Shown in pieces: positions 1,482-24,354 of a stretch of DNA of 42,807 bases (position 1 is the first letter of the stretch; each line of letters opens with the position of its first letter). Position numbers and translations under genes: made by a program. The stretch is taken from positions 1 through 42,807 of IMG/VR virus record IMGVR_UViG_3300005826_000259; one strand, 5' to 3'. The notes beneath the pieces were generated by a model, which saw only the letters and a list, made by a program, of their open reading frames with translations, was not told the DNA's origin and searched no databases. Source of the DNA: a virus.

Positions 1482-2131
1482 GTCGAGTTAGCAAAGTAGT
1501 AATATTGGTGGTGGTGATAGTGATGGTATTACTATTAATATATGGAATACACTTTAGAGGGGAGGTGGGAGCAAAGGGTTATAGGTATATGGATCAGCCT
1601 ATAGTTTTAGTGGATACGGAGGTATATCCTGTTTACATAGACATAATGTTTCGGAGGGGTGAAATAATTGAGATGGAGCGAGCGATTGAGAGGTGGAACA
1701 AGGTATTGAATGGTTACAGGAGGTTGGAGGTAGTGAGTGATGAGTACACGTTTGAGGATTTGGGGATAGCGAAGTTAGGTGTTGAGGGTAAAGTATATAT
1801 AATATTGAGGTTGGAGCCGGATTCTGAATTACTGATGGAGAGGAGGGGGAGTGTAACGTTAGCGTTTACGAATGAGATAGGCGGGACGATAATGTACATG
1901 GTACCTATGAACATAGAGGGTTTCAAATCTGAGGGGGTTAGTGTATACGGGGTTATGTTACACGAGATTGGGCATTGGTTTGGGGCTCGGCATGTTGAGG
2001 TTGGTTTAATGGAAGCGAGGTATAATGTTGGCGAGTTTCCATGTGTTGATGAGGGAACTGTACGACAGGTGAGTAAGTGGTTTAGGGGATATGAATGGGA
2101 GAGGATGAATTACTGTGTGGAGGAGGATTAA
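1478..2131 (+). CDS. membrane-anchored zinc metalloprotease (metzincin-like)
   Basis: This 217-residue paralog of the preceding protease has an N-terminal hydrophobic segment (about residues 7-24) after Arg3 and Lys6. No lipobox Cys is seen, so it is probably a signal anchor or an ordinary signal peptide. The zinc site is HEIGHWFGARH (His162, Glu163, His166, His172), with a Met-turn-like GLMEA (Met178) six residues later. ERWNKVLNG at about 71-79 matches the segment in the upstream gene. Translation is coupled to the upstream gene by an ATGA overlap at 1478. The 3' end overlaps the convergent first array gene by 4 nt, so the two transcription units collide here. Confidence 0.78.
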   Translation: MSRVSKVVILVVVIVMVLLLIYGIHFRGEVGAKGYRYMDQPIVLVDTEVYPVYIDIMFRRGEIIEMERAIERWNKVLNGYRRLEVVSDEYTFEDLGIAKLGVEGKVYIILRLEPDSELLMERRGSVTLAFTNEIGGTIMYMVPMNIEGFKSEGVSVYGVMLHEIGHWFGARHVEVGLMEARYNVGEFPCVDEGTVRQVSKWFRGYEWERMNYCVEED

Positions 2132-2397
2132 GAGAATGCGAGAAATTTTAGTAATTTATTGAAGTTGAAGGATTGAGTGATTGGGAAATCCAGGTGAATT
2201 GGGTTTCCCCAATCTTTTGTGGGTTTTCGTATATGTATAATTGATTTGGAGTTATTGACATCGAAGAATATGATATAATCTTCGTGATGTATGATATTTT
2301 CGTATGTATATTCGTTATATACGTAAGTTTTGCAATATTTACAGATAGTCATATAAGATGAGAGGGTGATTGATTTATTGCAGTAGGGGCAATTCAT
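2128..2397 (-). CDS. ZR-FS family protein 1 (last of the array)
   Basis: 89 residues; knuckles Cys3/Cys6 and Cys19/Cys22; tail KLLKFLAFS. This is the promoter-distal end of the array. The final Ser is TCT followed by TAA, so F-S is kept although no gene follows on this strand. It is the shortest intact member and has little sequence between the second knuckle and the tail. It lies 15 nt downstream of member 2 and converges with the second metalloprotease. Confidence 0.8.
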   Translation of the reverse strand: MNCPYCNKSITLSSYMTICKYCKTYVYNEYTYENIIHHEDYIIFFDVNNSKSIIHIRKPTKDWGNPIHLDFPITQSFNFNKLLKFLAFS

Positions 2398-2412
2398 TAG
2401 AAAGTTATTTTT

Positions 2413-2715
2413 TCAAAGGAAGGGGAGTAATTTTTTAGTTTTTGAAATGATATTATTTCTATTATGGATATTGAATGAATAGGGGAGGTCTATTATATTT
2501 TTCCAAAAGGTTAGGGGAGTAGATATTGGATCTACGCATCTTATTTTAATTAAAGTACCTGGTGAATTGATGAATGATCTTAGTATTAAGACTTTTGTAT
2601 CTATATAGAACAAGTAGTCATAATATATATTATGGTCATATTTATACAGGTAGCAATTACAATAGGGGCAATTAACATAGCGGTCTATATTTTGGGAGCA
2701 GCAGGGGCAATTCAT
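2413..2715 (-). CDS. ZR-FS family protein 2
   Basis: 100 residues; knuckles Cys3/Cys6 (with an extra Cys5) and Cys16/Cys19, unusually close together; tail KTKKLLPFL. Its ATG overlaps the stop of member 3 (2712-2715). Tyr-rich after the second knuckle (CNCYLYKYDH), which suggests a beta strand. Confidence 0.85.
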   Translation of the reverse strand: MNCPCCSQNIDRYVNCPYCNCYLYKYDHNIYYDYLFYIDTKVLILRSFINSPGTLIKIRCVDPISTPLTFWKNIIDLPYSFNIHNRNNIISKTKKLLPFL

Positions 2716-3077
2716 GAGAATATCAATAGTTTTTTAAAGATTTCGATTGATTTTTCGAAGTTATTGGGGTCAATTTTTATTATTTTATTTAGGGTGAGGA
2801 CAGGTTCGGTTGAGAGGTTGTAGGTATATTTATCTTTTGTCATATCGATTTCATTAAAAGACATATGGGATGGGTCTTTATTATAGCAGGTGTTTGGCAA
2901 TTGGCAGAATGAGGAGGTATTTTTATTCTTATTGACGGAGATTTCGAGACCATTTTTGCCAAAGATTTCGATATAGGTATTTCCGACATTATAGACCATG
3001 AACAGGCATGGGTGATTATGGCAGATATTATATCCTTGCAGATATTTCATTTTTTCGTTACAGAATTTACAGTTCAT
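2712..3077 (-). CDS. ZR-FS family protein 3 (Cys-His class)
   Basis: 121 residues; Cys3/Cys6, then CHNH with Cys19 and His22 as likely ligands. It carries the class-specific segment GKNGLEI after a hydrophobic strand and a long tail helix FEKSIEIFKKLLIFS. The same C-x-N-H plus K-[DN]-G-x-E-I layout recurs in members 6, 12 and 25-27, defining a subfamily. Its start lies 4 nt downstream of the stop of member 4. Confidence 0.85.
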   Translation of the reverse strand: MNCKFCNEKMKYLQGYNICHNHPCLFMVYNVGNTYIEIFGKNGLEISVNKNKNTSSFCQLPNTCYNKDPSHMSFNEIDMTKDKYTYNLSTEPVLTLNKIIKIDPNNFEKSIEIFKKLLIFS

Positions 3078-3080
3078 TAT

Positions 3081-3368
3081 TTATATAAAGGGTATTAGTT
3101 TAATGAGTCTTTTCATTTCTTTTTGGGAATCTTTTTTAGTGATTTTATAATCTAGGGAGCAGAGATAGTTTAGTGTGGATTGTTTTCCATTTATGTATTT
3201 TGAGACTTCGACGTAAGTTTTTTCGCCGATGGTGAAGTAGAAGATACAGTCTTTATATTGTTCGAAAGTTGAGTAACTATCTGAGTATATGGTGGAGTTG
3301 CAGGATCTGCAGAAGAAATATTTAAGTGGATTATTTACGACATCATTTGAGCAATAGGGGCAGATCAT
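3081..3368 (-). CDS. ZR-FS family protein 4
   Basis: 95 residues; knuckles Cys3/Cys6 and Cys20/Cys23; tail KEMKRLIKLIPFI. The last codon is ATA before TAA. It starts in an ATGA overlap with member 5. The middle (about residues 40-65) is hydrophilic with alternating hydrophobics, as in other Cys4-class members. Confidence 0.85.
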   Translation of the reverse strand: MICPYCSNDVVNNPLKYFFCRSCNSTIYSDSYSTFEQYKDCIFYFTIGEKTYVEVSKYINGKQSTLNYLCSLDYKITKKDSQKEMKRLIKLIPFI

Positions 3369-3652
3369 GAGAATATCAATAATTTTCTTAATCTAATTAT
3401 TTCTTTTTCATTATGATGGAAGACGAAATGATTTATAACAATAACTGGGACAAAGGATTGGTTAAAGTATACGTAGCATATACCTTCTTGAATTCTATTA
3501 TGTAGAGCCATACTGATTCCATCTATTTCAGTTCTTATAACGCAGCAGAGCAGGTTTTTATTTAGGTCTGAAAGTAGTAAGGAGTTACAATTTGAGCAAG
3601 TTATGCTTATTGAGGAATATTCGATATATTGATTGCATGAGGGGCAAATCAT
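3365..3652 (-). CDS. ZR-FS family protein 5
   Basis: 95 residues; knuckles Cys3/Cys6 and Cys19/Cys22; tail EIIRLRKLLIFS. ATGA overlaps at both ends tie it to members 4 and 6. Extra Cys residues occur in LLCCVIRTE (about residue 36) and near GICYVYF, probably buried rather than zinc-binding. Confidence 0.85.
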   Translation of the reverse strand: MICPSCNQYIEYSSISITCSNCNSLLLSDLNKNLLCCVIRTEIDGISMALHNRIQEGICYVYFNQSFVPVIVINHFVFHHNEKEIIRLRKLLIFS

Positions 3653-4005
3653 GAGAATATCAGCAATTTTTTGATTCTTTTTAAAGTTTTATCGAAATCA
3701 TTTGGGTTTATATCGATTTTCATATCCAGGCAGACAATATTTTGTGCGCCGATATAGCAGAAGCCATTAAACAGGAAGCTTTCATCATTTTCTTTATTTG
3801 AATAGGTTAGGAGTTGCATTTCCGATCCTATTAGACTTAGATTGATGGAAGCTATTTCTATACCATCTCTACATATTGATTTCCAATATATTTTTTCATT
3901 GGGAGTTATCATATGGATAACCATGATATCATTATGATTTTTACAAATGAAGCAGGATGGTATATAAGTTTTTTCCATTTGGGAGGAGCAGAAGCAACAA
4001 TTCAT
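3649..4005 (-). CDS. ZR-FS family protein 6 (Cys-His class)
   Basis: 118 residues from the ATG at 4005. A TTG seven codons upstream (4026) is in frame, but only the ATG gives the usual M-N-C-x-F-C start. Knuckles: Cys3/Cys6 and CKNH (Cys21/His24); class segment CRDGIEI; tail FDKTLKRIKKLLIFS. A TAAAAT sequence seven bases before the ATG could be a promoter -10, but no good -35 was seen. Confidence 0.82.
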   Translation of the reverse strand: MNCCFCSSQMEKTYIPSCFICKNHNDIMVIHMITPNEKIYWKSICRDGIEIASINLSLIGSEMQLLTYSNKENDESFLFNGFCYIGAQNIVCLDMKIDINPNDFDKTLKRIKKLLIFS

Positions 4006-4052
4006 TGGAATGATTTTAGTTAACAACTTAACATTATGTTTTTATATGCCTG

Positions 4053-4382
4053 TTATGAAAATATCACTAATTTTTCCAATCTTTCTTTTAGTGAGAATAG
4101 GATCTTTTGAGTTTCGTAATGTTTAATAAAGTGGTTGAAGGACATAAGGTTATCAAAACTATTTTCTATGAGATCGTGAGATCCAGATATTACAGTTTTA
4201 TTATTTTTGAATAGGAGTTTGAAGCAGCAATTTCCTTCATAACAATATAGCACAGCAAAATCTATATTATTATGTTTAGTTAGGTGTATTGTGCATCCAC
4301 AAGCCAAGCAGAGGCAATGACTGACATTTGAATCTGTAACAACTGAGAATGAGCAATGTGGGCAAATGATTTCTGAATTCAT
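4053..4382 (-). CDS. ZR-FS family protein 7
   Basis: 109 residues; first knuckle Cys7/Cys10; second in a Cys cluster HCLCLACGC, probably Cys25/Cys28. Tail RLEKLVIFS. Stop is TAA with a 47-nt gap before the likely ATG of member 6, so a new transcript or a reinitiation site may begin in that gap. Starts in an ATGA overlap with member 8. Confidence 0.85.
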   Translation of the reverse strand: MNSEIICPHCSFSVVTDSNVSHCLCLACGCTIHLTKHNNIDFAVLYCYEGNCCFKLLFKNNKTVISGSHDLIENSFDNLMSFNHFIKHYETQKILFSLKERLEKLVIFS

Positions 4383-4819
4383 ATGAATGGAATTAATTTC
4401 TTTATTTTTTCTAAATTTTTATCAAAATCATCTGGGAACAGTTTAGCATTTGAGTTTGGTGATTCATATATGATATTATATGAGTTTGAGATATAGCTTA
4501 AGTTTTTATAAGCAAGTTTATCGATATATTTTTTTCCTACAATTTTTTCGATTATGGATTTATGAAGATGTTCATTAGGCAACGGTATGAATTCTACATA
4601 CATTGTTTTTCTGAATTTAGGTTCGAAACTATTTGATTGATTAATTACAGCCAGACCATTTTTAGCAATTCTTATTTGACTTGAGTATGATCTAGTTGCT
4701 TGTGTGTATGTAAATAATACGGTTGAGTTATGGTTTGGGCAAAACCAACCGAATTGGTTCATATATATTAGGTCTTCTCCACAGAAGACACAAAATTCAT
4801 CGTCTTTATATCCGCTCAT
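4379..4819 (-). CDS. ZR-FS family protein 8 (Cys-His class, longest short form)
   Basis: 146 residues; knuckles Cys10/Cys13 and CPNH (Cys27/His30); class segment AKNGLAV; tail FDKNLEKIKKLIPFI. It has about 25 extra residues in the middle compared with other short members. Its ATG overlaps the TGA of the out-of-frame end of member 9, which shows the upstream gene was once read through to 4816. Confidence 0.85.
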   Translation of the reverse strand: MSGYKDDEFCVFCGEDLIYMNQFGWFCPNHNSTVLFTYTQATRSYSSQIRIAKNGLAVINQSNSFEPKFRKTMYVEFIPLPNEHLHKSIIEKIVGKKYIDKLAYKNLSYISNSYNIIYESPNSNAKLFPDDFDKNLEKIKKLIPFI

Positions 4820-5146
4820 AGGAAAGCTTTCAATGAGGCAATCTTTTTAATCTTTTTTATTGCCTCTTTTGGAGAGAACAATTTATTGATATGAATTGGT
4901 GATTTGCACCATTTATATTGTAGTTTTATTCTGTGATGGATAGCAATCAAAATATATTCTTGAGTTATCAAAATTCATAAATATTGTATAATAATTGATT
5001 ATGTTTTCATTTAAAAAAAATGAAACATGACAATTCTCACAATTATAGGCAGAATGTCTTATATAGACAGTGAGTGGGTCTAAATCACAGAATTTGCATT
5101 TCATAGGAAAGGTACTAATGACATTTTTTGGTGAGTAATTATTCAT
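4816..5146 (-). pseudogene. ZR-FS family protein 9, frameshifted
   Basis: The frame from ATG 5146 encodes two normal knuckles (Cys17/Cys20 and Cys36/Cys39) but stops at 4913 after 77 residues without the tail. The family C-terminus (KEAIKKIKKIASLKAFL) is intact in another frame down to a TGA at 4816-4818, which overlaps the ATG of member 8. The span 4816-5146 is 331 nt, one base more than a whole number of codons. A single indel, probably in the A-rich stretch around 4925-4960, explains this: a real mutation, a sequencing error or frameshifting. Confidence 0.75.
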
Positions 5147-5430
5147 AAGAATGCAATTACCATTTTAAATTTGTTTATGACTTTTTCGCAGGGAATAAAA
5201 TCTTCAAACAGCACAATTTTCTTGCTACTTAAAAAAACACCAGTTTTATTGGAGTGTTTATTTGCAACTATTAGAAAAACTTTATTATTCAGTCTAACTT
5301 CTATTTTATAGGAAATTATTTGTTTATAGTCGTGAGAAATAGTTATGTAACAATCACTACAACTATGAGTGTTATATTCTTTAACGCGACAATCTTGGTT
5401 CATAAAATTAGTACATAGGGGACATTTCAT
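5143..5430 (-). CDS. ZR-FS family protein 10
   Basis: 95 residues; knuckles Cys3/Cys6 and Cys24/Cys27; tail NKFKMVIAFL. ATGA overlaps with members 9 and 11. The middle contains KVFLIVANKHSNKTGVF, a strand-turn-strand pattern seen in many Cys4-class members (compare NKTYLYK in member 17). Confidence 0.85.
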   Translation of the reverse strand: MKCPLCTNFMNQDCRVKEYNTHSCSDCYITISHDYKQIISYKIEVRLNNKVFLIVANKHSNKTGVFLSSKKIVLFEDFIPCEKVINKFKMVIAFL

Positions 5431-5738
5431 GAGAATACCAATATAGTTTTAAGTTTTTGATCTAATTGTTTTGGGTGTATAAATGAGTTCAATTTTACGA
5501 TGACTTTATTATCAAAAAAAATTCCATTTGAAACTTTTGTTGAATAAACTATGGTAGTATTCATATAGCTAGAGGCTATTATTTTGAGAGAATTTCCTCC
5601 CACATTTCTATAGCAGAGGTATCCAATGGGAGCACCTTCTCTAAACTGGAGGGCGATTGGTTTTTCGCAGCAGCAATTGTGTGATAGTGCAGACTGTAAG
5701 CCTGAGTTTAGATTTAGATTACAATATGGGCAGTTCAT
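5427..5738 (-). CDS. ZR-FS family protein 11
   Basis: 103 residues; first knuckle Cys3/Cys6; the second is a run HNCCCEK (Cys22-24) rather than CxxC, so zinc binding may be altered. Tail QKLKTILVFS. ATGA overlaps at both ends. Confidence 0.83.
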   Translation of the reverse strand: MNCPYCNLNLNSGLQSALSHNCCCEKPIALQFREGAPIGYLCYRNVGGNSLKIIASSYMNTTIVYSTKVSNGIFFDNKVIVKLNSFIHPKQLDQKLKTILVFS

Positions 5739-6100
5739 GAGAATACATTTAATGTGGAGATTTTATTTTTTAGATTATCGAAGTTTTCCACTGAGAAATC
5801 TATTTTTTCTATGAAGGGTATTGCTTGAATTGTGATTGGTGTTGAGTAATAATATCCTTCGAAATCTAGTTTATTGTAAAAAATCTTATAATTTTGTTTA
5901 TAAGTTTTGGAGTCATGGTATTTAATTAATCTTAGATGGAATGCTGTTTTTTGTATTTCGTATCCATTTTTACAGAGTGACAGTGATGAGCCTGGAGTAA
6001 TACAATCATATAAAATCATAGTATCGCCATGATTTTTACACAAGTGGATATTTAATTCGGGAGATTCAATCATTTCTTTATTACAGAATTCACAAATCAT
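5735..6100 (-). CDS. ZR-FS family protein 12 (Cys-His class)
   Basis: 121 residues; Cys3/Cys6 and CKNH (Cys21/His24); class segment CKNGYEI; tail FDNLKNKISTLNVFS, where Ser-Thr-Leu replaces the usual Lys-Lys-Leu. Starts 14 nt below the stop of member 13; the coding strand there (AAAGGATTATTATG) offers AAGGA as a ribosome site. Confidence 0.85.
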   Translation of the reverse strand: MICEFCNKEMIESPELNIHLCKNHGDTMILYDCITPGSSLSLCKNGYEIQKTAFHLRLIKYHDSKTYKQNYKIFYNKLDFEGYYYSTPITIQAIPFIEKIDFSVENFDNLKNKISTLNVFS

Positions 6101-6113
6101 AATAATCCTTTAA

Positions 6114-6449
6114 TCATGAAAATGGTATCATTTTCTTTAATTTATTGAGAGTTTTACAAAACTCTTCAGGTTTAATCATTTTATTAAAATCTACTTTCAT
6201 TATTTCTGTACCATAAGAGAAGTAATCGTATTTTGGGGATAGTTCACAATTACCTTCATCACATTCATGAAGGTACAGAGTCATATTCTTTTCTTTGAGA
6301 TCAAAAGTAATTTCATATTTACCCATAATCAAATCATATTCATGATCTCTGAAGATTACAATTACATCTTCATGGTTTAAACAAACCATGAAGCCTTCAA
6401 GTTTTGATAAATCAATTCCGCAAAACGCGCAATATCTTTCATTTGTCAT
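6114..6449 (-). CDS. ZR-FS family protein 13 (Cys-His class)
   Basis: 111 residues; Cys7/Cys10 and CLNH (Cys23/His26); tail FCKTLNKLKKMIPFS. The middle is acidic (EHEYDLIMGKYEI, HECDEGNCELS) and replaces the K-D-G-x-E-I segment with GKYEI. Coupled to member 14 by ATGA. Confidence 0.85.
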   Translation of the reverse strand: MTNERYCAFCGIDLSKLEGFMVCLNHEDVIVIFRDHEYDLIMGKYEITFDLKEKNMTLYLHECDEGNCELSPKYDYFSYGTEIMKVDFNKMIKPEEFCKTLNKLKKMIPFS

Positions 6450-6772
6450 GAGAACACCAATAATGTCTTTAGTTTTGAGTTTGCTTCTCTTGGATTGAAT
6501 ATTTGAGGAATATCTTTGATAACAATCGATCCATTATGATATAGGCAGGATAAATTTGGACCAATTTCACACAATAACATATATTTATCGAAATTATCGC
6601 CCATATTGATAATATAATAATCCAAGCCATTTTTAGACAGGAAGAAGTTTACGTGACAGTCTGGGCAATCAATTCTAAAAATCAATGCTCCTTTGAATAT
6701 GAATTTGCCATTTTCTGAGATAACTTTACTATCACAGAATATACATTTTGGGAAATCGTCTGAACTTTTCAT
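6446..6772 (-). CDS. ZR-FS family protein 14
   Basis: 108 residues; knuckles Cys10/Cys13 and Cys36/Cys39, with a longer loop containing a Gly/Lys/Phe-rich strand pair. After the second knuckle comes FFLSKNGLD, close to the matching part of member 9. Tail SKLKTLLVFS. ATGA overlaps at both ends. Confidence 0.85.
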   Translation of the reverse strand: MKSSDDFPKCIFCDSKVISENGKFIFKGALIFRIDCPDCHVNFFLSKNGLDYYIINMGDNFDKYMLLCEIGPNLSCLYHNGSIVIKDIPQIFNPREANSKLKTLLVFS

Positions 6773-7122
6773 GAAAAGGCTATTAACTTCATAAATTTTT
6801 CAAAATACTTATCGAAATTATCTGGACAAAGATCATGGAATGAGATATTGATTTTGATTAAAGGGGTTCCATAATCGCCATAATAAAATCCATTATTGGA
6901 ATACTTTTGGACATTAAATGATGGATTGTTTGACATTATTAATTCATGAGATCTTAATATTGTGCATTGTTCTATTAGAGATACTTCAATTTCGTATATA
7001 CCTTTACAAATTGAGAAGGCTTGTGCTTTAGTAAAATGCATTATGAAGTACCCATCATGTTCTCTGCAAAAAGCTATAAAGTCATCTCCTCCTATATCTT
7101 TTTTGCAGAAACGACAATTCAT
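6769..7122 (-). CDS. ZR-FS family protein 15 (Cys-His class)
   Basis: 117 residues; Cys3/Cys6 and CREH (Cys19/His22); class segment CKGIYEI; tail FDKYFEKFMKLIAFS, with aromatic residues in the helix where most members have Lys/Leu. ATGA overlaps at both ends. Confidence 0.85.
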   Translation of the reverse strand: MNCRFCKKDIGGDDFIAFCREHDGYFIMHFTKAQAFSICKGIYEIEVSLIEQCTILRSHELIMSNNPSFNVQKYSNNGFYYGDYGTPLIKINISFHDLCPDNFDKYFEKFMKLIAFS

Positions 7123-7433
7123 GAAAACGCCACCAAGGATTTAAATCTTTTTACATAATGCTCAAAATTGCCGGGATTAATTGGAAATGCTTCCGGAACA
7201 CATATTATCAGTGCTCGTTTTTTTAGATCATACAGGGTTGTTTTTATTTCGCGTCTCTCTTCACAAAGCTCAAAATCCTCAGACATGATAGATATTCCGT
7301 ATCTATCTTCTGCGACGAGAAGATCATCGTGATTATCGCACACAAACCCATATGAGTGGTTATTGCACACACACACTGTATTGCAATAACCACAATGTGC
7401 ATATGAGACATTGATCATTTTGAAGTACTTCAT
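7119..7433 (-). CDS. ZR-FS family protein 16 (Cys-His class, extra Cys pair)
   Basis: 104 residues from the ATG at 7433 (a GTG lies one codon earlier). Three ligand sets: Cys14/Cys17, Cys21/Cys23 and CDNH (Cys32/His35), so it may bind a second zinc or have alternative ligands. Tail FEHYVKRFKSLVAFS. The junction with member 17 is TGATG instead of ATGA. Confidence 0.83.
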   Translation of the reverse strand: MKYFKMINVSYAHCGYCNTVCVCNNHSYGFVCDNHDDLLVAEDRYGISIMSEDFELCEERREIKTTLYDLKKRALIICVPEAFPINPGNFEHYVKRFKSLVAFS

Positions 7434-7747
7434 CACATGAACACAAGAATGGTTTTGAGTTTCTTTTTGACATTCTCGGGAGTGAGTTGTAAAATCTCAT
7501 CCCACTCACCCAATTTTCTAGAACAATATCTTGTCTTCATTTTTTTATAAAGATAAGTTTTGTTTGAATATATTGAGCATGTGAACCAATATATTTCGCC
7601 ACCCAGACTAAAAATAATCCTATATGTATATTTACCATAAAATCTAACATTACAATCCTTACAATGTAAGATTCTGGTATCATTTATATTTTCCAAGCTA
7701 GCGCCGCAGAACTTGCAACACTTCAATTCGCTGTCTGCCGTCTCCAT
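7433..7747 (-). CDS. ZR-FS family protein 17
   Basis: 104 residues; knuckles Cys11/Cys14 (plus Cys10) and Cys29/Cys32; tail KKKLKTILVFM, the only member ending in Met, because its last codon ATG precedes TGATG. A promoter-like TTGACA-N18-TGTTAT lies just upstream with its -10 only 11 nt from the ATG, so this gene may start a transcript. Confidence 0.85.
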   Translation of the reverse strand: METADSELKCCKFCGASLENINDTRILHCKDCNVRFYGKYTYRIIFSLGGEIYWFTCSIYSNKTYLYKKMKTRYCSRKLGEWDEILQLTPENVKKKLKTILVFM

Positions 7748-7758
7748 ATTTGTATGTC

Positions 7759-7788: not shown

Positions 7789-7789
7789 T

Positions 7790-8116
7790 TTATGAGAATA
7801 ACTGATACAACTTTAGTTTATTTTTGAAAAATGACTGAGCATTATATGGAGTTAGGTTGAAGCGTTCTGATTTGAAAACGATCTTCATCTTTATATATTT
7901 GCCTTCTACTGATATCTCATATATTAAAGTACTATTATCTTCAAAATTATGGTCTATTCTATAGTTATCTTTGTCATTTACTGTTACAAAGAATATTATT
8001 TCCCTTAATTCGTCGCTTCTATTATTATAGTAGTACAGAGCCTTGCATTTATTGCATTTAGGAAGCCCTATTTTTTCTCTAGCGACCGATCCATCTTCAC
8101 AATAAAGGCACTTCAT
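7790..8116 (-). CDS. ZR-FS family protein 18
   Basis: 108 residues; knuckles Cys3/Cys6 and Cys21/Cys24; tail FFKNKLKLYQLFS, which replaces the usual L-[LIV] before Phe with Y-Q-L. It ends with TCA TAA and a 42-nt gap to member 17 that holds the candidate promoter. Starts in an ATGA overlap with member 19. Confidence 0.85.
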   Translation of the reverse strand: MKCLYCEDGSVAREKIGLPKCNKCKALYYYNNRSDELREIIFFVTVNDKDNYRIDHNFEDNSTLIYEISVEGKYIKMKIVFKSERFNLTPYNAQSFFKNKLKLYQLFS

Positions 8117-8454
8117 TTCATTAACAGGTATGTTTTAATTTTGTTCAGCAAGGCATCTTCAGTAGTTAGTTTAATTCTCTTATCGACTGTAATTATATGA
8201 CTTAGACCAGTTTTAGATAAAATATTATTATCGTATTCATATATTGAAGTGGAAGTATGTTGAATAATAACCTTATATGGCATAATAATTGCTATAGTTC
8301 TCCGATAATACGGAGGATTTTCTATTTTATTACCCGTTTCATAATGGGATTCCACACCAAGACATGTTATGTATTTTGATGGGCACATCCAAGTATGTAA
8401 ATACGGGGTATCTCTATTTTCTTCCAACTCTTCTCTACAAAAAGGACAAATCAT
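8113..8454 (-). CDS. ZR-FS family protein 19 (divergent tail)
   Basis: 113 residues; Cys3/Cys6, then Cys24 and Cys31 seven residues apart, so the second knuckle is irregular. The tail is NKIKTYLLMK: the F-S ending is lost, but the last codon AAA still gives the ATGA overlap with member 18. This is the clearest case where overlap and tail are separated. Confidence 0.82.
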   Translation of the reverse strand: MICPFCREELEENRDTPYLHTWMCPSKYITCLGVESHYETGNKIENPPYYRRTIAIIMPYKVIIQHTSTSIYEYDNNILSKTGLSHIITVDKRIKLTTEDALLNKIKTYLLMK

Positions 8455-8813
8455 ATGAACGCCACCAGTTTATATAATCTTTTTAGAAGTTTATCAACAC
8501 CAACTATCTTTCCCTTCCTAATAGATAGCGGAATAAACGTATCTGGCAGATATAGAATGGTTTTATATTCTCTATAAGAGATTTTTTCTGAAACAATCAA
8601 ATAACTATTTGCTTGTTCTATTTTATATTTTACAGAACCATCATCCATAATAAACAGAATATACTTATCTATTTTATTAAGTTCATTTACATTGATTGCA
8701 CAATGCATATCTGGACACTCGTAAGAGTGAGTCGGGGTTCCTTCTATTTTTTCAATCTCTTCTAATTGTTTTTCGCACTGATAACACTTTAATATTTTTG
8801 ATTTAGAAACCAT
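8451..8813 (-). CDS. ZR-FS family protein 20
   Basis: 120 residues from the ATG at 8813, which has the ribosome site AGAGGAA; a TTG at 8828 is in frame but less likely. Knuckles Cys10/Cys13 and Cys33/Cys38. Tail LLKRLYKLVAFI. Its start lies inside the end of the third metalloprotease gene (25-nt overlap), so the two are probably co-transcribed. Confidence 0.83.
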   Translation of the reverse strand: MVSKSKILKCYQCEKQLEEIEKIEGTPTHSYECPDMHCAINVNELNKIDKYILFIMDDGSVKYKIEQANSYLIVSEKISYREYKTILYLPDTFIPLSIRKGKIVGVDKLLKRLYKLVAFI

Positions 8814-17254: not shown

Positions 17255-17308
17255 TAAATATAATACTTACTTAACACCTGTTATATCTTATTTAAGATTG
17301 GAGATACT

Positions 17309-17872
17309 ATGGACAAAACGCAAACAAAATGGACTAAAGAAAAACAAGCTGCTTATTATAAAGAATGGCGTAAAAAAAATAAAGAAAAGATTTCTGAATA
17401 CCAGAAAAAATGGCATGAAGAAAATAGAGATAAAACAAAGCAATATTTAGAAGATAACAAAGAATATATATCTGAAAAATCTAAAAAATATAGAGAAGAA
17501 AACAAAGAATACTTAAAAGAATTATGGAAAGAATGGTACAAGAAAAACAAAGAAAGATCTCCTAAAAGAAGATTTACTGAAGCAAAGAACGCTGCAAAGA
17601 AAAGAAATATAGAATGGAAATTATTATTTGAAGAGTATATAAAACTAATAGAAACTCCTTGTTATTACTGCAATAATGAATTAGGACCGCCCGTTAAAAG
17701 ATCAATAGGATTAGATAGATTAGATTCTAATGGATGTTATGAATTAAATAATGTTGTATCATGTTGTTATAAATGTAATACTTTAAAAAGTAATATTTTT
17801 ACTCCCGAAGAAACAAAAATGGCAGTAGAAACTATTTTAAATTATAGAAAATCACTTATTGTGAAATCTTAA
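17309..17872 (+). CDS. HNH homing endonuclease
   Basis: 187 residues. The first 95 or so are Lys/Glu-rich and probably helical (repeats of EENKEY and KKYREE type), a DNA-contacting spacer. The nuclease core follows: CYYC (about 117-120), SIGLDRLDSNGCYELNNV with the catalytic HNH-fold pattern, and CCYKCNTLKSN. This matches the phage HNH family with G-x-D-R-x-D-S and C-x-x-C-N-x-x-K motifs. Ribosome site ggaga just before the ATG. It overlaps the 3' end of the RF2 gene by 21 nt on the opposite strand, so it lies beside a conserved essential-type gene, a typical homing niche. Confidence 0.85.
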   Translation: MDKTQTKWTKEKQAAYYKEWRKKNKEKISEYQKKWHEENRDKTKQYLEDNKEYISEKSKKYREENKEYLKELWKEWYKKNKERSPKRRFTEAKNAAKKRNIEWKLLFEEYIKLIETPCYYCNNELGPPVKRSIGLDRLDSNGCYELNNVVSCCYKCNTLKSNIFTPEETKMAVETILNYRKSLIVKS

Positions 17873-18934
17873 CGTCGATATTAAAAATTCGTTGATATTT
17901 CCATTTAATACATCTTCAAAATTTTTAATCTCAAAAGAAGTCCTATGGTCTTTAACAAGAGAATAGGGACTTTCTGTATATGTTCTTATTTGACTACCAA
18001 AAGATATATCTAATTGTTCTTCAAAAGTTTTATCTTGTTCTTTCTTTTTCTTTTTCATTTCTAAATCATAAAGTTTTGCTTTTAATATACTAAAAGCATT
18101 CTTCTTATTAACAGATTGGTCTCTTTCAGTTCTTGATAAGACTATTATACCTGTTGGAATATGTTTAAGTCTTATTGCAGATTGAACGCGATTCACATTC
18201 TGTCCGCCTTTCCCACCAGCGGTCTGACTTTTCACTTCAACATCTTTCATATTAAGTTCAACTTCAACGCTATCCTCTATATCAGGAACAACAGAAATTG
18301 CAGCAAACGACGTATGTCTTGCAGATCCGGAATTGAAAGGAGAATTTCTTATCAAACGATGAACCCCTGTTTCTCCCTTAAGATAACCATATGCATTTTT
18401 TCCGAAGAACCTAAGAGAAACAGAATCAGTACAAATTGCTGAGTGATCATTGCATGGATTAAGATCTAATATTTCACATTCAAACCCTTCACTAACTGCC
18501 CATTTAACATACATATGCATAAGCATTGTAACCCAATTAGCAGCTTCTAATCCACCAGCACCTGCATTAATTGTCATAATGGCTGGTTTATTGGACATAG
18601 GATCTGTCATCATAATGGATAATATAAGTTCAGACATCTCTTCTGACAGAGTGATAAGTTGGTTCTTATCTACTTCCTCAGGAATAGCCTCTGAACATTC
18701 AGACAAAAAACTCCACTCATCCCTTAATAGGGTGTACTGTCTAATAATTATAGATATTTCTTGTCTCTTTTTTGTAATCTTTGTTGCTGTAGCAGGATCC
18801 TTCCAAAAGTCTTTTTGTGACATTTGCTCATCATATCTAGCCAATTGCTCAGTATACTTTGCAATAGGTATAAGCTCTTTAAGAATATCCAGCTTTTCTG
18901 CACACAATGTTACCAATTGTTGCAAATCTTCCAT
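17852..18934 (-). CDS. prfB: peptide chain release factor 2
   Basis: 360 residues from the ATG at 18934, which has GGAGA upstream; a TTG five codons earlier is less likely. All release-factor-2 hallmarks are present: the stop-recognition tripeptide SPF (198-200) in RNSPFNSGSARHTSF, and the GGQ peptidyl-tRNA hydrolysis motif (243-245) in GGKGGQNVNRVQSA. Length matches bacterial RF2. It terminates translation at UGA and UAA. Unlike many bacterial prfB genes, no in-frame early stop interrupts the reading frame, so the usual autoregulatory frameshift is absent. It lies inside the array, whose overlaps mostly use TGA. A phage-encoded RF2 is uncommon; it could keep UGA termination efficient when host factors are limiting. 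Confidence 0.95.
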   Translation of the reverse strand: MEDLQQLVTLCAEKLDILKELIPIAKYTEQLARYDEQMSQKDFWKDPATATKITKKRQEISIIIRQYTLLRDEWSFLSECSEAIPEEVDKNQLITLSEEMSELILSIMMTDPMSNKPAIMTINAGAGGLEAANWVTMLMHMYVKWAVSEGFECEILDLNPCNDHSAICTDSVSLRFFGKNAYGYLKGETGVHRLIRNSPFNSGSARHTSFAAISVVPDIEDSVEVELNMKDVEVKSQTAGGKGGQNVNRVQSAIRLKHIPTGIIVLSRTERDQSVNKKNAFSILKAKLYDLEMKKKKKEQDKTFEEQLDISFGSQIRTYTESPYSLVKDHRTSFEIKNFEDVLNGNINEFLISTLRFHNK

Positions 18935-18952
18935 GTATAAAATCTCCAATTA

Positions 18953-19630
18953 TTAACTAAATAATAAAAACATCTTTATCTTTTTTCTTAACTCTTCTCC
19001 ATCTTTGATAGAGAACAAATCAATCTTAGGTATTCTTGCTACTATATTATAGTTATCAAAAATAAATGTTTCTTCTTCATGGTTTAAAGTCATAAAAGAT
19101 AATGACGCATTTGTATCCGCATCATTGTTTGGTATTCCAAACATTTGTGCTTCTAAAATTATAGGCGATACAACCTTGCTTTTTCTCTCGATAGTTAATG
19201 GTTTGCTATTATAAGTGAATAAAAAGCCGCTACCAAAACACCATTCATTTGTGCATCTAACACATAAAGTAAGATTATGTCTCCATATTAAATTGCAAGC
19301 TATTAATAAATCCCCTACCAAAGAGTTATCATCAATATTTATTGAAAATTGAGAATTATCTGTAACATCTTTAAATTCTGGATTTCCTTTGTACCAATAA
19401 TTAATGTGATTATCTTTTACAGAGGATATATATCTTCCAGCTTTTTCAGCATATTCTCGTGTAAACATATCTTTTCTACTAAGATGTCTTGCAAAGCCCT
19501 CTGGTTGTCTAAACTCATAATCTATAAATCCACCAGAGTCTCTAGTATTGAAGAATAAATATGTTTCATTTTTACAAAGAGGGCATATCTTTCCTTTATT
19601 GTAAAAATCACGTATTGTTTTAAATCTCAT
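18953..19630 (-). CDS. ZR-FS family protein 35, long form
   Basis: 225 residues; N-helix MRFKTIRDFYNKG; first knuckle Cys16/Cys19 (CPLC); distal cluster CVRCTNEWC (Cys123, Cys126, Cys131). Tail LRKKIKMFLLFS, Ser as AGT before TAA. It lies 18 nt upstream of the RF2 start and is probably co-transcribed with it. Confidence 0.83.
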   Translation of the reverse strand: MRFKTIRDFYNKGKICPLCKNETYLFFNTRDSGGFIDYEFRQPEGFARHLSRKDMFTREYAEKAGRYISSVKDNHINYWYKGNPEFKDVTDNSQFSINIDDNSLVGDLLIACNLIWRHNLTLCVRCTNEWCFGSGFLFTYNSKPLTIERKSKVVSPIILEAQMFGIPNNDADTNASLSFMTLNHEEETFIFDNYNIVARIPKIDLFSIKDGEELRKKIKMFLLFS

Positions 19631-19645
19631 GACATTATATCCAAA

Positions 19646-20617: not shown

Positions 20618-20642
20618 AATGTTATATAAAGATATTACCAGA

Positions 20643-21290
20643 TTACGAAATCAATATCCAATTACTAATCATATTGATTACTTTTTCTTTATCAGAAAAA
20701 TTGATGTTCTTTTTTATTGCATCTATTTCTTTATGAAAGATTTTTGGATCATAATCCTCATTATTAAGATCTTCTTGGGAACATGTATAATGCCATATTG
20801 ATGTTTTTTGCAATATATTATCTATTCGCATCATATATGATTTATGCTCTGTATCAGTATCTAATGTAAAGGAATATGCTTCGAAAGATATAATTCCATC
20901 ACTTTCTTCAATATCTTCGCTAATATTAAAAAAGATACGACCATCAGTTTCTCTAAACTTCAGAAACTTAGTTGATTTATAATAACATAGATCATGAACA
21001 TTTAGTTCAAAATCTGAATCGTCTTTGCTTTCTATTGCTGACTCGTTGCATATTCTAAAGAAATACATATCAGCATTCTTATTCTTTTCATAAATTTCTT
21101 TATTCAACTTGAATGATGAATTAAACATCACCATGCAGGATTTTTTATCTTTAGAAGAGACAGGATTAAAAATACCAGTATCAGGATCCATTTTAAATAG
21201 ATCAGAATAAAGCATCTTTATATATAGATGTGTTTTGTTACCACAACAAGGACAAATATCCTTATCTATAAAATCAATTAATTCTTTCAT
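20643..21290 (-). CDS. ZR-FS family protein 36, long form (diverged tail)
   Basis: 215 residues; N-helix MKELIDFIDKD; CPCC (Cys13/Cys16); only a single distal Cys (HYTCSQED), so the second knuckle is incomplete. Tail VINMISNWILIS lacks the Phe and most Lys. Ribosome site AAGGAAAG precedes the ATG. A diverged member of the long class. Confidence 0.78.
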   Translation of the reverse strand: MKELIDFIDKDICPCCGNKTHLYIKMLYSDLFKMDPDTGIFNPVSSKDKKSCMVMFNSSFKLNKEIYEKNKNADMYFFRICNESAIESKDDSDFELNVHDLCYYKSTKFLKFRETDGRIFFNISEDIEESDGIISFEAYSFTLDTDTEHKSYMMRIDNILQKTSIWHYTCSQEDLNNEDYDPKIFHKEIDAIKKNINFSDKEKVINMISNWILIS

Positions 21291-21298
21291 AACTTTCC

Positions 21299-21955
21299 TT
21301 AACTAAAATTGACCAGAGTTTTTATTCTGTGGTGCAATTTTTCCGAATTGAAATTTTCAAAATCTATTATTGGAAAACTAATCGCACCAGCTTCTGGATT
21401 TGATGTTGATATTATATTTGTCCGTTCTTTTCCCCAATCATTCTGGACCCAGAATTTTCCAACATTACAAGCTTCCCAATACAACCTAAATGATCCTATT
21501 GATGATTGCTCAATAAAATTATGAAACTTACCAGGATCAACGATTGGTGGCGTACATCTTAATATAGAACTACAAAGATAATACTCCATGAAACAATGTT
21601 TGTTGGTACAAACTAATTCTATATGAGGTTTAAGACTTTCAAATGCTTCTATTGCTTGTCTTTGCGTAACAGATTTATAATCGTAATATTCGCTAGTATA
21701 TGAAGATGGGTCTATATCCATCGAGATAATATTGGTATCTACATCAATTGATATGTTCATTTTTAAATGGAGATACATTGTTGTGTGGCTAAAAGAAAAC
21801 TCAAACTTATTGTCTCTAGGAATAGAACTTATGATAGGGATCTGTTTATCATGACCAATGAAATTGGTTAGCATTGGTTCAAGCTTTGAACCGCAGAAAA
21901 CACACTTATCTCTAAGTTCTATGAATTCTCTAATCTTATTGAAGACCTTCTTCAC
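21299..21955 (-). CDS. ZR-FS family protein 37, long form
   Basis: 218 residues with a GTG start at 21955, supported by GAGG five bases upstream. N-helix KVFNKIREFIELRDK; CVFC (Cys18/Cys21); distal CTNKHC (Cys116/Cys121). Tail LHHRIKTLVNFS, Ser as AGT before TAA. 8 nt separate it from member 36. Confidence 0.82.
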   Translation of the reverse strand: MKKVFNKIREFIELRDKCVFCGSKLEPMLTNFIGHDKQIPIISSIPRDNKFEFSFSHTTMYLHLKMNISIDVDTNIISMDIDPSSYTSEYYDYKSVTQRQAIEAFESLKPHIELVCTNKHCFMEYYLCSSILRCTPPIVDPGKFHNFIEQSSIGSFRLYWEACNVGKFWVQNDWGKERTNIISTSNPEAGAISFPIIDFENFNSEKLHHRIKTLVNFS

Positions 21956-21961
21956 TAAACC

Positions 21962-22489
21962 TCACGTAAAAACTACTAACTTTTTTATCCTCTTATATAC
22001 CTCATAAGGGTCAGTAACTATATTTTCAAAAAACGGAACTTCAACTATTTTTGGATTATCAAGTCTACCATCTATATCTAACTTTGATATCTCGACAGTC
22101 TCTTTATTATATCTACAAAACAAATGATCTCGTTCATCTGAGTTATTAGAAATGATAAATGTTTGTGAAATCAAATAGGCATGATCTAATACATTGGAAG
22201 AAACGTTTAGTACAAACACTATATTATAACTGTATCTACCACAACAATTACATTCAAATCTATGTGGAGCAAAAGTTTTTCCATCGTAATCCACTCGACA
22301 AATATTGTTTCTATAATCGTAAAAACAACACTCTCCTTCTTTATTAAGCTCAGCTATATTAACCTTAGTACCAGGAATATATACATATAGGGTCACTCCT
22401 GATGGGATATTGATATCACAGTGGCAAATAGGACAACCACGCATATGATAAAATAAGTCGTGAACATTATAAAACTCAATCATCTTCAT
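21962..22489 (-). CDS. ZR-FS family protein 38, long form
   Basis: 175 residues from the ATG at 22489, chosen because MKMIEFYNVHDL matches the N-helix of other long members; ATG 22483 and upstream TTG/ATG are possible. CPIC (Cys19/Cys22); distal ECNCCGRYSYN (Cys80/Cys83), close to CTNCCCYSYN of member 39. Tail VYKRIKKLVVFT, Thr instead of Ser. The start overlaps the end of the kinase-like gene. Confidence 0.82.
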   Translation of the reverse strand: MKMIEFYNVHDLFYHMRGCPICHCDINIPSGVTLYVYIPGTKVNIAELNKEGECCFYDYRNNICRVDYDGKTFAPHRFECNCCGRYSYNIVFVLNVSSNVLDHAYLISQTFIISNNSDERDHLFCRYNKETVEISKLDIDGRLDNPKIVEVPFFENIVTDPYEVYKRIKKLVVFT

Positions 22490-23123
22490 AATACTTGTCG
22501 TACACTTCTCTTGTAAGACCTGCATCAATTAATATTGGACGCCCCTTTAATGTCCCCCAGGATGATATTCTAGCCATGTCGCCGGGCATTAATTTGAATT
22601 TTTTACCAAGAGATAGCATTTCTTTATATACATCAGAATCTTTTACATCATCAAAATCAGAGGGCTTATCGTGAGTCGTTCCAGCTACACCTTTAAGTCC
22701 ATATGAAATAGCTGCACTAAAAGATTGGAAATTAACTCCAGTCATTTCCTCAAATTGCTTAACCTTTATCTTTTCTAATTTTTCAGTCTCCATCCATGCA
22801 TTATTTTTAGCACTTCTTAAAACCTTATTAAGATATTTTGATTTCATTTTTGGATTTGACTCAACTTCATTTTGAGCCAAACCTTTCTCATTCTTAGCTA
22901 GTTTAACAATCGTTCCCTTGCTTGTCAAGTAAACAATGCGTGACGAGCCAGATGAAAAATGTTTTAAATTTCTCTCAGCATACTTCTTTCGCGCGCGAAA
23001 GGTCTCCAGATTTTCCAAGTTTTTGAGCACTTTTGTAAGATCTTTACTATCCTCTGGTAGTTCTTCACCGAGGGCTACTTTTAGGTACTTAGAGGCACAT
23101 TTTAATAATCTATCAACATCCAT
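22476..23123 (-). CDS. protein-kinase-fold-like protein
   Basis: 215 residues. FSSGSSRIVY (56-65) resembles a glycine-rich ATP loop, IVKLA (Lys74) the beta-3 lysine, QNE (84-86) a helix-C glutamate, and ILIDAGLT (197-204) the metal-binding DFG segment with Phe replaced by Ala. PGDMARISSWG just before it may stand for the catalytic loop, but no HRD is seen, so activity is uncertain; a pseudokinase is possible. The N-terminus MDVDRLLKCASKYLKVA resembles the short helix that starts two downstream structural-type proteins. GGAG lies upstream of the ATG. The 3' end overlaps member 38. Confidence 0.55.
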   Translation of the reverse strand: MDVDRLLKCASKYLKVALGEELPEDSKDLTKVLKNLENLETFRARKKYAERNLKHFSSGSSRIVYLTSKGTIVKLAKNEKGLAQNEVESNPKMKSKYLNKVLRSAKNNAWMETEKLEKIKVKQFEEMTGVNFQSFSAAISYGLKGVAGTTHDKPSDFDDVKDSDVYKEMLSLGKKFKLMPGDMARISSWGTLKGRPILIDAGLTREVYDKYYEDD

Positions 23124-23163
23124 ATAGAGATACTCCGATAATCATATTGATATATAACCCTAT

Positions 23164-23697
23164 ATGACTATATCAATGGAAGAGTTTCTTAAACTCATTA
23201 ATGAAATTGTTGAAGAGGAAGAACGTGATTCAAAATTTTCAGATGAATATTTTGAAGAGGGCACTTCTTTGCCTTCCGTATTTGAAATACTAAATAAAAT
23301 GAAAGATCCTCCTAAAAAGGCGGTACAATTATCTAACAAGAGCGGCACCATTGATGTAGAAAACATGAAAAATAATGAGATATTACGCCATGTAAAAACG
23401 AAAAATGAATTTAAGGTTGGTGATTTTATAATCCATGTTAGTGATGGAAGCAAGGTAGACCATGTTAATATACATATACTAGAAAACCAGCGTAAAACAG
23501 CGTCAGGTTTTCCATGTAATATGTTAGTTAAAAAAAATGTTATCAGTGATAAAAGATTTGCTTCTTGTCCATGGTTATCATACTTTTCTGGCAAATATGG
23601 TGTTCCAAGAAGAACAGCATACGATGTTCCTACTGAAGAGATTATAAATATAATTAAGTGGGTAAAAGCTATTAACAAAATGACCGCCTTTTTATGA
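23164..23697 (+). CDS. plus-strand ORF with a ZR-FS-like tail, acidic N-terminus
   Basis: 177 residues. The first 35 are strongly acidic (EEFLKLINEIVEEEERD). No zinc knuckles. The C-terminus IINIIKWVKAINKMTAFL matches the array tail pattern (compare ASLKAFL in member 9). The middle has FKVGDFIIHVSDGSKVDH, which looks like a small beta domain. It diverges from the kinase-like gene and converges with member 39 (6-nt overlap). Starts 23164 or 23176 are possible. No family recognised. Confidence 0.65.
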   Translation: MTISMEEFLKLINEIVEEEERDSKFSDEYFEEGTSLPSVFEILNKMKDPPKKAVQLSNKSGTIDVENMKNNEILRHVKTKNEFKVGDFIIHVSDGSKVDHVNIHILENQRKTASGFPCNMLVKKNVISDKRFASCPWLSYFSGKYGVPRRTAYDVPTEEIINIIKWVKAINKMTAFL

Positions 23698-24354
23698 AAA
23701 GATAATCAATTTTTCTAATCTATTTATAAGGTTATCGATATTATCTATTTTTTGGAGGCTAACTTTTAGCATATTATCATTTGTATAATACATATAATCC
23801 CACTCCATTCTTAATTTTAAGTTTAGTTCAGTACTATTAGTATTAAACCAATCAACGACAGAAGTATTTTTATCGTATTGATTTGTTATTCTATAAACTC
23901 TATAATTATCTTCTCCAATTTTCTTATAAGTTGAGATATACTCTTCAGACACATAAAAATTTCCTAGTTTTGAATTCTTCATATCTATAGCAAAATAATT
24001 TGTATTGTAACTATAGCAACAACAATTGGTACAAAATCTATAGAAAACACCAGTATTAGATTTGTTGTATTTATTAAATCCTTGAATATAAGAAACCGGC
24101 ACTATATTAGATAGAACTTCTCCCCTAGCATTGGAAAAGTCAACATAGAATGTATTATCATTCATATTAATCGAATAAATAAACGAATACAACCGATGTT
24201 TATTAAGTGTGTACATATCTTTTTTAATAAGTACACGGTTATCTTCGTATCTTATAAGTTTTCTTGTTTTTCCTTTGAATGCTAGAGAAAGATTTTTACT
24301 ACATAATGGGCACTGAGGGCGGTAATTAATGAATTCTTTTACACTCTTAATCAT
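23692..24354 (-). CDS. ZR-FS family protein 39, long form (first of the array)
   Basis: 220 residues from the ATG at 24354 (a GTG at 24372 is in frame but lies within the likely promoter). N-helix MIKSVKEFINYRP; CPLC (Cys15/Cys18); distal CTNC (Cys108/Cys111) followed by CCYSYN. Tail INRLEKLIIFS. It heads the array and is preceded by TTGATA-N17-TATATT. Confidence 0.84.
   Translation of the reverse strand: MIKSVKEFINYRPQCPLCSKNLSLAFKGKTRKLIRYEDNRVLIKKDMYTLNKHRLYSFIYSINMNDNTFYVDFSNARGEVLSNIVPVSYIQGFNKYNKSNTGVFYRFCTNCCCYSYNTNYFAIDMKNSKLGNFYVSEEYISTYKKIGEDNYRVYRITNQYDKNTSVVDWFNTNSTELNLKLRMEWDYMYYTNDNMLKVSLQKIDNIDNLINRLEKLIIFS

What the first reader, a model, noticed from the sequence alone, without database searches (positions are those of the whole stretch)
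2128..24354. Array of about 39 paralogous zinc-knuckle proteins sharing a C-terminal F-S tail
Seen: 33 short and six long minus-strand ORFs share an N-terminal CxxC, a second CxxC or C-x-N-H, a beta-rich middle and a Lys-rich helix ending around K-L-x-x-F-S. About half of this 22-kb segment is one family, an unusual investment for a phage. Known: two-knuckle small proteins commonly bind nucleic acids or proteins. Inference: this is either a diversifying set of host-interaction or anti-defence effectors (each copy for a different target) or a set of parts of one assembly, such as a transcription or ribosome-binding system.
Basis: partly seen in the sequence, partly recalled or inferred. Interest (0 to 1): 0.9.

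Follow-up and report, generated by a model that had tools for sequence, protein, structure and literature searches.

The report
Huge-phage zinc-protein array sharing C-terminal tag
A huge, uncultivated bacterial virus carries 39 fast-changing copies of one small zinc-binding protein in a row, all ending in much the same short tail; its relatives put that tail on unrelated proteins too, so it looks like a shared plug for attaching many different viral proteins to one partner.

Summary
2128-24372 encodes 39 minus-strand paralogs (33 short, 6 long; one short copy frameshifted), covering 68% of the segment. They carry an N-terminal zinc ribbon; 36 of 39 have Phe at the second-last position, 24 end in Phe-Ser. 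Matching arrays sit at the same locus, around a phage release factor 2, in about ten huge-phage contigs (up to 481 kb). The fold is confidently predicted (pLDDT 93): a zinc-capped seven-strand beta meander plus a C-terminal helix, with no PDB match. The ends are constant and the middle is hypervariable. Copies at one end of the array are lineage-specific; most at the other end have relatives in many contigs.

New here: the tail is a linear motif, [K/R]-x6-F-[S/L/W/I]-COOH, that also ends many zinc-less small proteins elsewhere in these genomes (K/R at -9 in 33/45, p=2.5e-20; replicated in a further genome; absent from control phages). This favours a docking tag on a variable effector repertoire. 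Partner and targets are unknown. Bacillus phage G has a comparable published zinc-ribbon expansion (36 copies) with a different tail, so this is a new variant of a known but unexplained kind.

The parts
2128..2397 (-). short zinc member, tail LAFS
2413..2715 (-). short zinc member, tail LPFL
2712..3077 (-). short zinc member (CxxC, CxNH type), tail LIFS
3081..3368 (-). short zinc member, tail IPFI
3365..3652 (-). short zinc member, tail LIFS
3649..4026 (-). short zinc member (CxNH type), tail LIFS
4053..4382 (-). short zinc member, tail VIFS
4379..4819 (-). short zinc member (CxNH type), tail IPFI
4816..5146 (-). one frameshifted short member: zinc half 4913-5146, tail half 4816-4971 (LKAFL)
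5143..5430 (-). short zinc member, tail IAFL
5427..5738 (-). short zinc member, tail LVFS
5735..6100 (-). short zinc member (CxNH type), tail NVFS
6114..6449 (-). short zinc member (CxNH type), tail IPFS
6446..6772 (-). short zinc member, tail LVFS
6769..7122 (-). short zinc member (CxEH type), tail IAFS
7119..7436 (-). short zinc member (CxNH type), tail VAFS
7433..7747 (-). short zinc member, cluster B, tail LVFM
7790..8116 (-). short zinc member, tail QLFS
8113..8454 (-). short zinc member, cluster D, tail LLMK (atypical)
8451..8828 (-). short zinc member, tail VAFI
9462..9887 (-). short zinc member, tail VIFS
9869..10204 (-). short zinc member, cluster B, tail LTFS
10250..10627 (-). short zinc member, cluster B, tail LLFS
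11847..12194 (-). short zinc member, cluster D, tail VVFS
12191..12553 (-). short zinc member (CxNH type), tail VPFA
12550..12897 (-). short zinc member (CxNH type), tail VMFS; closest to its neighbour at 12894 (E about 1e-21)
12894..13247 (-). short zinc member (CxNH type), tail KAFL
14028..14396 (-). short zinc member, cluster C, tail ILFL
14406..14783 (-). short zinc member, tail NLFY
14780..15175 (-). short zinc member, cluster C, tail VIFS; relatives in other contigs (6 labels)
15182..15541 (-). short zinc member, cluster C, tail ITFS; relatives in other contigs (12 labels); structure predicted (pLDDT 93.3)
15567..15899 (-). short zinc member, cluster C, tail IAFS; relatives in other contigs (11 labels)
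15896..16306 (-). short zinc member, cluster C, tail LMVS; relatives in other contigs (7 labels)
16227..16676 (+). zinc-less protein ending KLNKLKMFV (K at -9, F at -2), conserved at this place in relatives
16673..17254 (-). long zinc member, tail LVFS; relatives in other contigs (14 labels)
17852..18949 (-). release factor 2 (PCRF and RF-1 domains) inside the array; associated, not a family member
18953..19630 (-). long zinc member, tail LLFS
20643..21290 (-). long zinc member, tail ILIS (atypical); relatives in other contigs (7 labels)
21299..21955 (-). long zinc member, tail VNFS; relatives in other contigs (9 labels)
21962..22528 (-). long zinc member, tail VVFT
23164..23697 (+). zinc-less protein ending INKMTAFL, conserved in about ten contigs; its C-terminal half is distantly related to 16227-16676
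23692..24372 (-). long zinc member, tail IIFS; relatives in other contigs (8 labels)
36451..36885 (+). zinc-less protein ending ERIERLRVFS (R at -9, F at -2), outside the array

Best explanation
This is a phage-borne repertoire of small adaptor-like effector proteins. Each has a zinc-ribbon-capped beta-meander domain whose middle varies freely and is taken to be the target-binding face, plus a constant C-terminal helix ending in a docking motif, [K/R]-x6-F-[S/L/W/I]-COOH. The repertoire grows by tandem duplication at one end of the array, next to metalloprotease genes, and diverges by birth and death. SHOWN by computation: the array, its conservation at one locus, the fold prediction, constant ends with a hypervariable middle, and the same tail on unrelated zinc-less proteins of these phages. 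INFERRED: that the tail docks all these proteins on one shared partner (host machine, phage protein or membrane), and that the variable domains bind different host or competitor proteins during infection.
For: Shared linear motif: choosing zinc-less proteins of two genomes only by their last residues (F second-last), K/R is at -9 in 33 of 45 (p=2.5e-20) with positions -8 and -10 to -12 near background; replicated in G010, 10 of 21, p=6e-5, 41 tail proteins. A matrix trained on G001 zinc-less tails finds 17 of 411 in G003 (expected 0.11) and 0 of 192 in control phages. The 347-aa protein G003:386209-387252 ends IKKFLVFS and its G007 ortholog VKKYLAFS, while the domain's relative in Bacillus phage Goe8 lacks that tail. 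Protein-level selection: the final Ser is always TCA inside ATGA overlaps but uses all six codons elsewhere. Hypervariable middle: full profiles of most pairs of zinc clusters match at 91-98%, middles alone below 5%; column entropy 3.1 bits in the strands against 1.95 in the helix and tail. Turnover: members at 2.1-7.4 kb have no relative at E<1e-5 in other genomes, most members at 14.8-24.4 kb do. Fold. No tail protein lies between 199 and 360 kb of G001, which includes the apparent structural block.
Against: No binding partner or target is known. The end of the helix is predicted with high confidence (pLDDT 94), so in the zinc proteins the tail may pack on its own sheet rather than dock. The zinc-less proteins prefer F-W or F-L where the zinc family prefers F-S, so they may not share one receptor. 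In the distant relative G007 only a few zinc-less tails occur and second-last F is not clearly enriched. The conserved 23164-23697 family has A, not K/R, at -9. Ancient common descent of some beta-rich zinc-less proteins with the family is not excluded.
Confidence: 0.45

Rival explanations
1. The tail is a handle for proteolysis: it delivers these proteins, or targets bound to them, to a compartmental protease, perhaps the phage's own ClpP pair, in the way C-terminal HbYX or HslU tails dock on protease rings.
For: All seven contigs above 350 kb that were tested (G001, G003, G007, G010-G013) encode two adjacent ClpP paralogs; by eye the first lacks catalytic Ser and His and the second keeps them. 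Hydrophobic, aromatic, any residue, free carboxylate resembles HbYX (described in PMC11475706). Iyer et al. discuss jumbo-phage ClpP as possibly deployed against the host (PMC7824862).
Against: HbYX has Tyr, here it is Phe; no proteasome or HslV relative is encoded; no clear phage ClpX/ClpA. Co-occurrence within one clade is weak evidence; G007 has the ClpP pair but few zinc-less tails.
Confidence: 0.13
2. The tail is an amphipathic membrane-targeting helix.
For: Basic helix ending in aliphatic and aromatic residues; net charge of the last 13 residues +2.1 to +2.4 against +0.3 for other genes.
Against: Hydrophobic moment 0.29-0.35 against 0.30 for other C-termini, so not unusually amphipathic; a fixed F at exactly -2 and K/R at -9 look like pocket recognition; the AF2 helix is predicted with high confidence.
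Confidence: 0.1
3. The tail is a virion-packaging address: the proteins ride in the capsid and are injected, as cargo peptides address proteins to HK97-fold encapsulin shells.
For: Many small proteins of different families with one C-terminal peptide is the cargo-peptide pattern (from memory); huge capsids have room.
Against: No tail protein in the G001 structural block; several probable virion proteins instead share an N-terminal motif (24548-25276, 25334-26017; seen by eye).
Confidence: 0.12
4. The proteins are DNA-binding transcription factors or nucleoid proteins, as proposed for the zinc-ribbon expansion of Bacillus phage G.
For: Zinc ribbons often bind nucleic acid; PMC7824862 suggests this for phage G.
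Against: Body net charge -0.1 (window) and +0.3 (relatives) per 100 aa, phage G family 0.0; no DNA-binding Pfam, PHROG or PDB match.
Confidence: 0.1
5. The tail is only the last helix of a conserved fold, kept because Phe plugs the core; there is no docking partner.
For: Helix 106-118 reaches the C-terminus with pLDDT about 94; hydrophobic spacing fits one buried face.
Against: The tail ends proteins that look all-helical, such as G001:400981-401277 and G003:139204-139482 (by eye), and a 347-aa protein whose domain relative lacks it; the chain stops one residue after F in nearly all; K/R at -9 is not a core residue.
Confidence: 0.1

Closest known systems
Zinc-ribbon (ZnR) expansion of Bacillus phage G (Iyer et al. 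2021, PMC7824862)
   Same: 36 copies found here, 28 of them in one 18-kb tandem block; zinc ribbon, variable body, conserved C-terminal segment; near-neutral charge; function unknown.
   Different: Its C-terminal motif is YWKENDRYLAKIL and is not fixed to the last residue; profile alignment to our clusters covers only 13-19 columns around the first zinc knuckle, apart from weak (5%) alignments of about 30 columns to the window-only cluster. Whether its segment is shared with zinc-less proteins was not tested.
Poxvirus ankyrin/PRANC (F-box) proteins (PMC9414399)
   Same: Large viral multigene family: variable target-binding part plus constant C-terminal docking part (logic only).
   Different: No ankyrin repeats, no PRANC match; the docking partner here is unknown.
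HbYX and HslU C-terminal docking tails of protease activators (PMC11475706)
   Same: Short C-terminal motif with a second-last aromatic (HbYX) and a free carboxylate; these phages encode ClpP.
   Different: Phe instead of Tyr; the proteins are not ATPases or known activators; no proteasome or HslV encoded.
Encapsulin cargo-loading peptides (from memory)
   Same: One C-terminal peptide on many unrelated proteins.
   Different: No evidence of capsid association.
Pfam zinc ribbons (Zn_ribbon_6 and others)
   Same: CxxC knuckle.
   Different: All matches below curated cut-offs.

Membership tests
Phage G ZnR expansion | zinc ribbon | tested here: met
   C7, C10, C37 100%, H42 88% in 52 sequences
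Phage G ZnR expansion | large tandem array of paralogs | tested here: met
   39 here; 28 in one block in phage G
Phage G ZnR expansion | C-terminal YWKENDRYL segment | tested here: not met
   window tails are [K/R]x6F[S/L]
Phage G ZnR expansion | homology beyond the zinc knuckle | tested here: inconclusive
   hhalign covers 13-19 columns in most pairs, best probability 87%; about 30 columns at 5% with cluster A9; A8 finds phage G at 16 bits at best
Poxvirus ANK/PRANC | ankyrin repeats and C-terminal PRANC/F-box | tested here: not met
   no Pfam match
Poxvirus ANK/PRANC | C-terminus docks on host degradation machinery | not testable with these tools
   needs pull-down
HbYX protease-docking proteins | hydrophobic-Tyr-X C-terminus | tested here: not met
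   second-last residue is Phe in 227 of 250 zinc members
HbYX protease-docking proteins | cognate proteasome or HslV encoded by the phage | tested here: not met
   PF00227 absent in 10 records; two ClpP present in all seven large ones
Known phage protein families (Pfam, PHROGs, NCBIfam, PADLOC) | match above cut-off | tested here: not met
   no significant match for zinc members; PADLOC hits at E 0.001-0.006 cover partial stretches only
Known folds (PDB) | Foldseek match to a solved structure | tested here: not met
   best E 0.16, TM 0.40 or less for the short member; zinc-less model likewise none
Encapsulin-type cargo | loaded in a protein shell | not tested
   needs virion proteomics

The most novel reading that the evidence does not exclude
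These huge phages run a modular 'plug and socket' system: one C-terminal peptide, [K/R]-x6-F-x-COOH, addresses some 40 or more different small phage proteins, a tandemly amplified zinc-ribbon repertoire among them, to a single hub (possibly the phage-encoded ClpP pair or a host machine), so that new host-targeting specificities arise by duplicating a gene and diversifying only its middle. It would be a bacterial-virus counterpart of poxvirus ankyrin/F-box adaptors.
Probability: 0.25. Interest if true: 0.92.

Novelty: new variant of a known kind. Interest (0 to 1): 0.72.

Why it matters
Large paralogous families without function are a standing puzzle of jumbo-phage genomes; phage G's zinc-ribbon expansion has been noted without explanation. 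Here the family is resolved into constant ends and a hypervariable middle, a confident fold without a PDB match, a conserved locus, and a tail shared with unrelated proteins. That makes the question testable: find what binds the tail peptide, and the partner of dozens of unknown phage proteins may be found at once. If the tag is a docking plug, it is a general way for phages to evolve new host-targeting specificities quickly.

Tried and rejected
Tail as a DNA-level effect of ATGA overlaps: rejected, because final Ser is kept with all six codons outside overlaps. Sliding clamp as hub: no DnaN domain found in ten records. Proteasome or HslV as hub: none. Named phage relatives: none for three proteins and only weak Streptomyces-phage matches to 38159-38638. 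Cellular homologs: none in GTDB genomes. Host: the RF2 scan gave one Falkowbacteria MAG at 35% identity, which does not identify a host. Unusual genetic code: not needed for the array; TAG is rare as a stop. Rfam: nothing in the window. A profile of the CxNH subfamily alone was too variable for a collection scan. Middle-only profile comparison gave no signal, so sequence alone cannot show that the middles share a fold; that rests on one AF2 model and BFVD matches. The literature search covered only the open-access library and few phrasings.
Full report
OBSERVATION. The array is real. On the minus strand, 2128-24372, there are 33 short and 6 long paralogous genes. ORFs 4913-5146 (zinc end) and 4816-4971 (tail end) are one copy broken by a frameshift or sequencing error. 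The genes cover 68% of the segment; 19 junctions are 4-base ATGA overlaps. Second-last F is in 36 of 39, F-S in 24. A position matrix from the last 16 residues scores every member at 7-31 bits by leave-one-out, with a maximum of 11.1 in 24,520 internal 16-mers; 192 genes of phages G, T4 and phiKZ give no hit of 6 bits or more.

WHERE IT COMES FROM. The window is one 42.8-kb virus record. A conserved 159-aa protein (38159-38638) finds nine IMG/VR contigs of 7-452 kb. RF2 is conserved in six (47-53% identity), and the same kind of array surrounds it. Alignments of a long member and of a zinc-less neighbour bring in contigs up to 481 kb. There are no close named phage relatives and no match in GTDB genomes.

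ANATOMY. In the 52-sequence cluster C, C7, C10, C37 are invariant, H42 88%, F118 94%, S119 73%, consistent with one zinc site. AlphaFold2 on window:15182-15541 gives pLDDT 93.3, pTM 0.84: seven strands (15-94) and a C-terminal helix 106-118. No PDB match (best E 0.16). BFVD models of uncultured-phage relatives keep the fold at 40, 19 and 12% identity (TM normalised to query 0.83, 0.78, 0.59). Full profiles of most pairs of zinc clusters match at 91-98% probability, though some pairs involving small or long clusters are lower; with zinc end and tail removed all are below 5%. Entropy is 3.1 bits in the strands and 1.95 in helix and tail.

EVOLUTION. Members at 2.1-7.4 kb have no relative in other genomes at E<1e-5, while many of them have paralogs in the window; most members at 14.8-24.4 kb have relatives in 6-14 contig labels (the labels partly overlap, since several loci can come from one genome). 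Neighbours at 12191, 12550 and 12894 are close relatives of one another. This is a conserved core around RF2 with an expanding end next to metalloprotease genes.

THE TAIL IS MORE THAN A FAMILY FEATURE. The window-trained matrix finds 15 of 658 genes at 10 bits or more in G001 and 22 of 568 in G003 (expected about 0.05 each), some without zinc motifs. Across all loci, 232 distinct tail proteins: 211 with a zinc motif, 21 without. An independent matrix seeded on nine zinc-less G001 tails finds 17 of 411 in G003 (expected 0.11; 0 of 192 in controls). Choosing zinc-less proteins only by F at -2 and the last residue, K/R stands at -9 in 33 of 45 (p=2.5e-20), while -8 and -10 to -12 are near background; some of the 45 are orthologs or paralogs, so the p-value overstates independence. 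Replicated in G010: 10 of 21, p=6e-5; 41 tail proteins in that genome, 28 with zinc motif. Zinc-less examples in the window are 16227-16676(+), 23164-23697(+) and 36451-36885(+). One protein of about 340 aa carries the tail in G003 and G007, while its domain relative in Bacillus phage Goe8 does not. Final Ser uses TCA in ATGA overlaps but all six codons elsewhere, so the residue itself is selected.

MECHANISM. Constant ends plus hypervariable middle plus copy-number turnover point to a repertoire of binding proteins. A bipartite C-terminal motif on unrelated proteins points to docking on a common partner. The partner is unknown. Body charge near zero argues against general nucleic-acid binding; hydrophobic moment is ordinary, which weakens membrane targeting; tail genes are absent from the structural block of G001, which weakens virion cargo. 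Two adjacent ClpP genes in all seven large contigs make a protease a candidate hub, without direct evidence.

KNOWN COMPARISON. PMC7824862 reports about 35 zinc-ribbon copies in Bacillus phage G, function unknown. Tested here: 36 copies, 28 in one 18-kb block, with C-terminal YWKENDRYLAKIL. Similarity to our family is limited to the zinc knuckle in profile alignments, so it is the same kind of system, but common descent is not shown. Poxvirus ankyrin/PRANC proteins are an analogy in logic only (PMC9414399).

VERDICT. Observation confirmed; interpretation partly supported; a new variant of a known but unexplained kind, with a shared C-terminal tag as the new element. Main limits: no experimental partner, one confident structural model, gene calls made with a simple ORF caller, and contigs of unknown completeness.

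Noticed in passing
17852-18949 (-); stops in window and relatives: A phage-encoded release factor 2 sits inside the array, here and in relatives; TAG is almost unused as a stop (2 of 67 in the window) and tail genes use TGA far more often than others (195/298 against 342/997).
   Followed up: partly
G001:217479-218653, G003:310327-311509, also G007, G010-G013: Two adjacent ClpP genes; by eye the first lacks the catalytic Ser and His, the second keeps them, like a ClpR/ClpP pair.
   Followed up: partly
864-2131 (+), 8789-9457 (-), 10653-11480 (+): Three HExxH metalloproteases (matrixin-like; at least one with a lipoprotein-like signal) and a papain-family protease lie at or in the expanding end of the array; similar proteases occur there in other contigs.
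   Followed up: no
L023:1-12000, L025:1-5900, L028:12000-20000, L029:1-14000, L032:3000-20000: Beyond the array's expanding end, relatives run into a GC-rich stretch (52-61% against about 31-35%) with few convincing ORFs; frames that ignore TGA are longer there, which high GC alone may explain. Unexplained.
   Followed up: partly
window 246-269; L025:5391-5412; L029:14093-14114: A conserved 22-base motif TTTGGGAGGCAAGARNCGNGCC just outside the array in three phages, next in the window to a 13-base tandem repeat (279-333).
   Followed up: partly
33305-34894 (+): An HNH-like N-terminal part is fused in frame to a truncated IMP dehydrogenase/GMP reductase; relatives have the full enzyme.
   Followed up: no
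24548-25276, 25334-26017, 22476-23123 (all -): Several proteins share an N-terminal motif like ILKKAELFEKLA, possibly a virion-sorting signal separate from the C-terminal tag.
   Followed up: no
28095-28586 (+): Looks like a SET-domain protein (by eye, not tested).
   Followed up: no
L207:1560-20001 (Bacillus phage G): The phage G zinc-ribbon block has its own conserved C-terminal segment YWKENDRYLAKIL; whether zinc-less phage G proteins carry it was not tested.
   Followed up: partly
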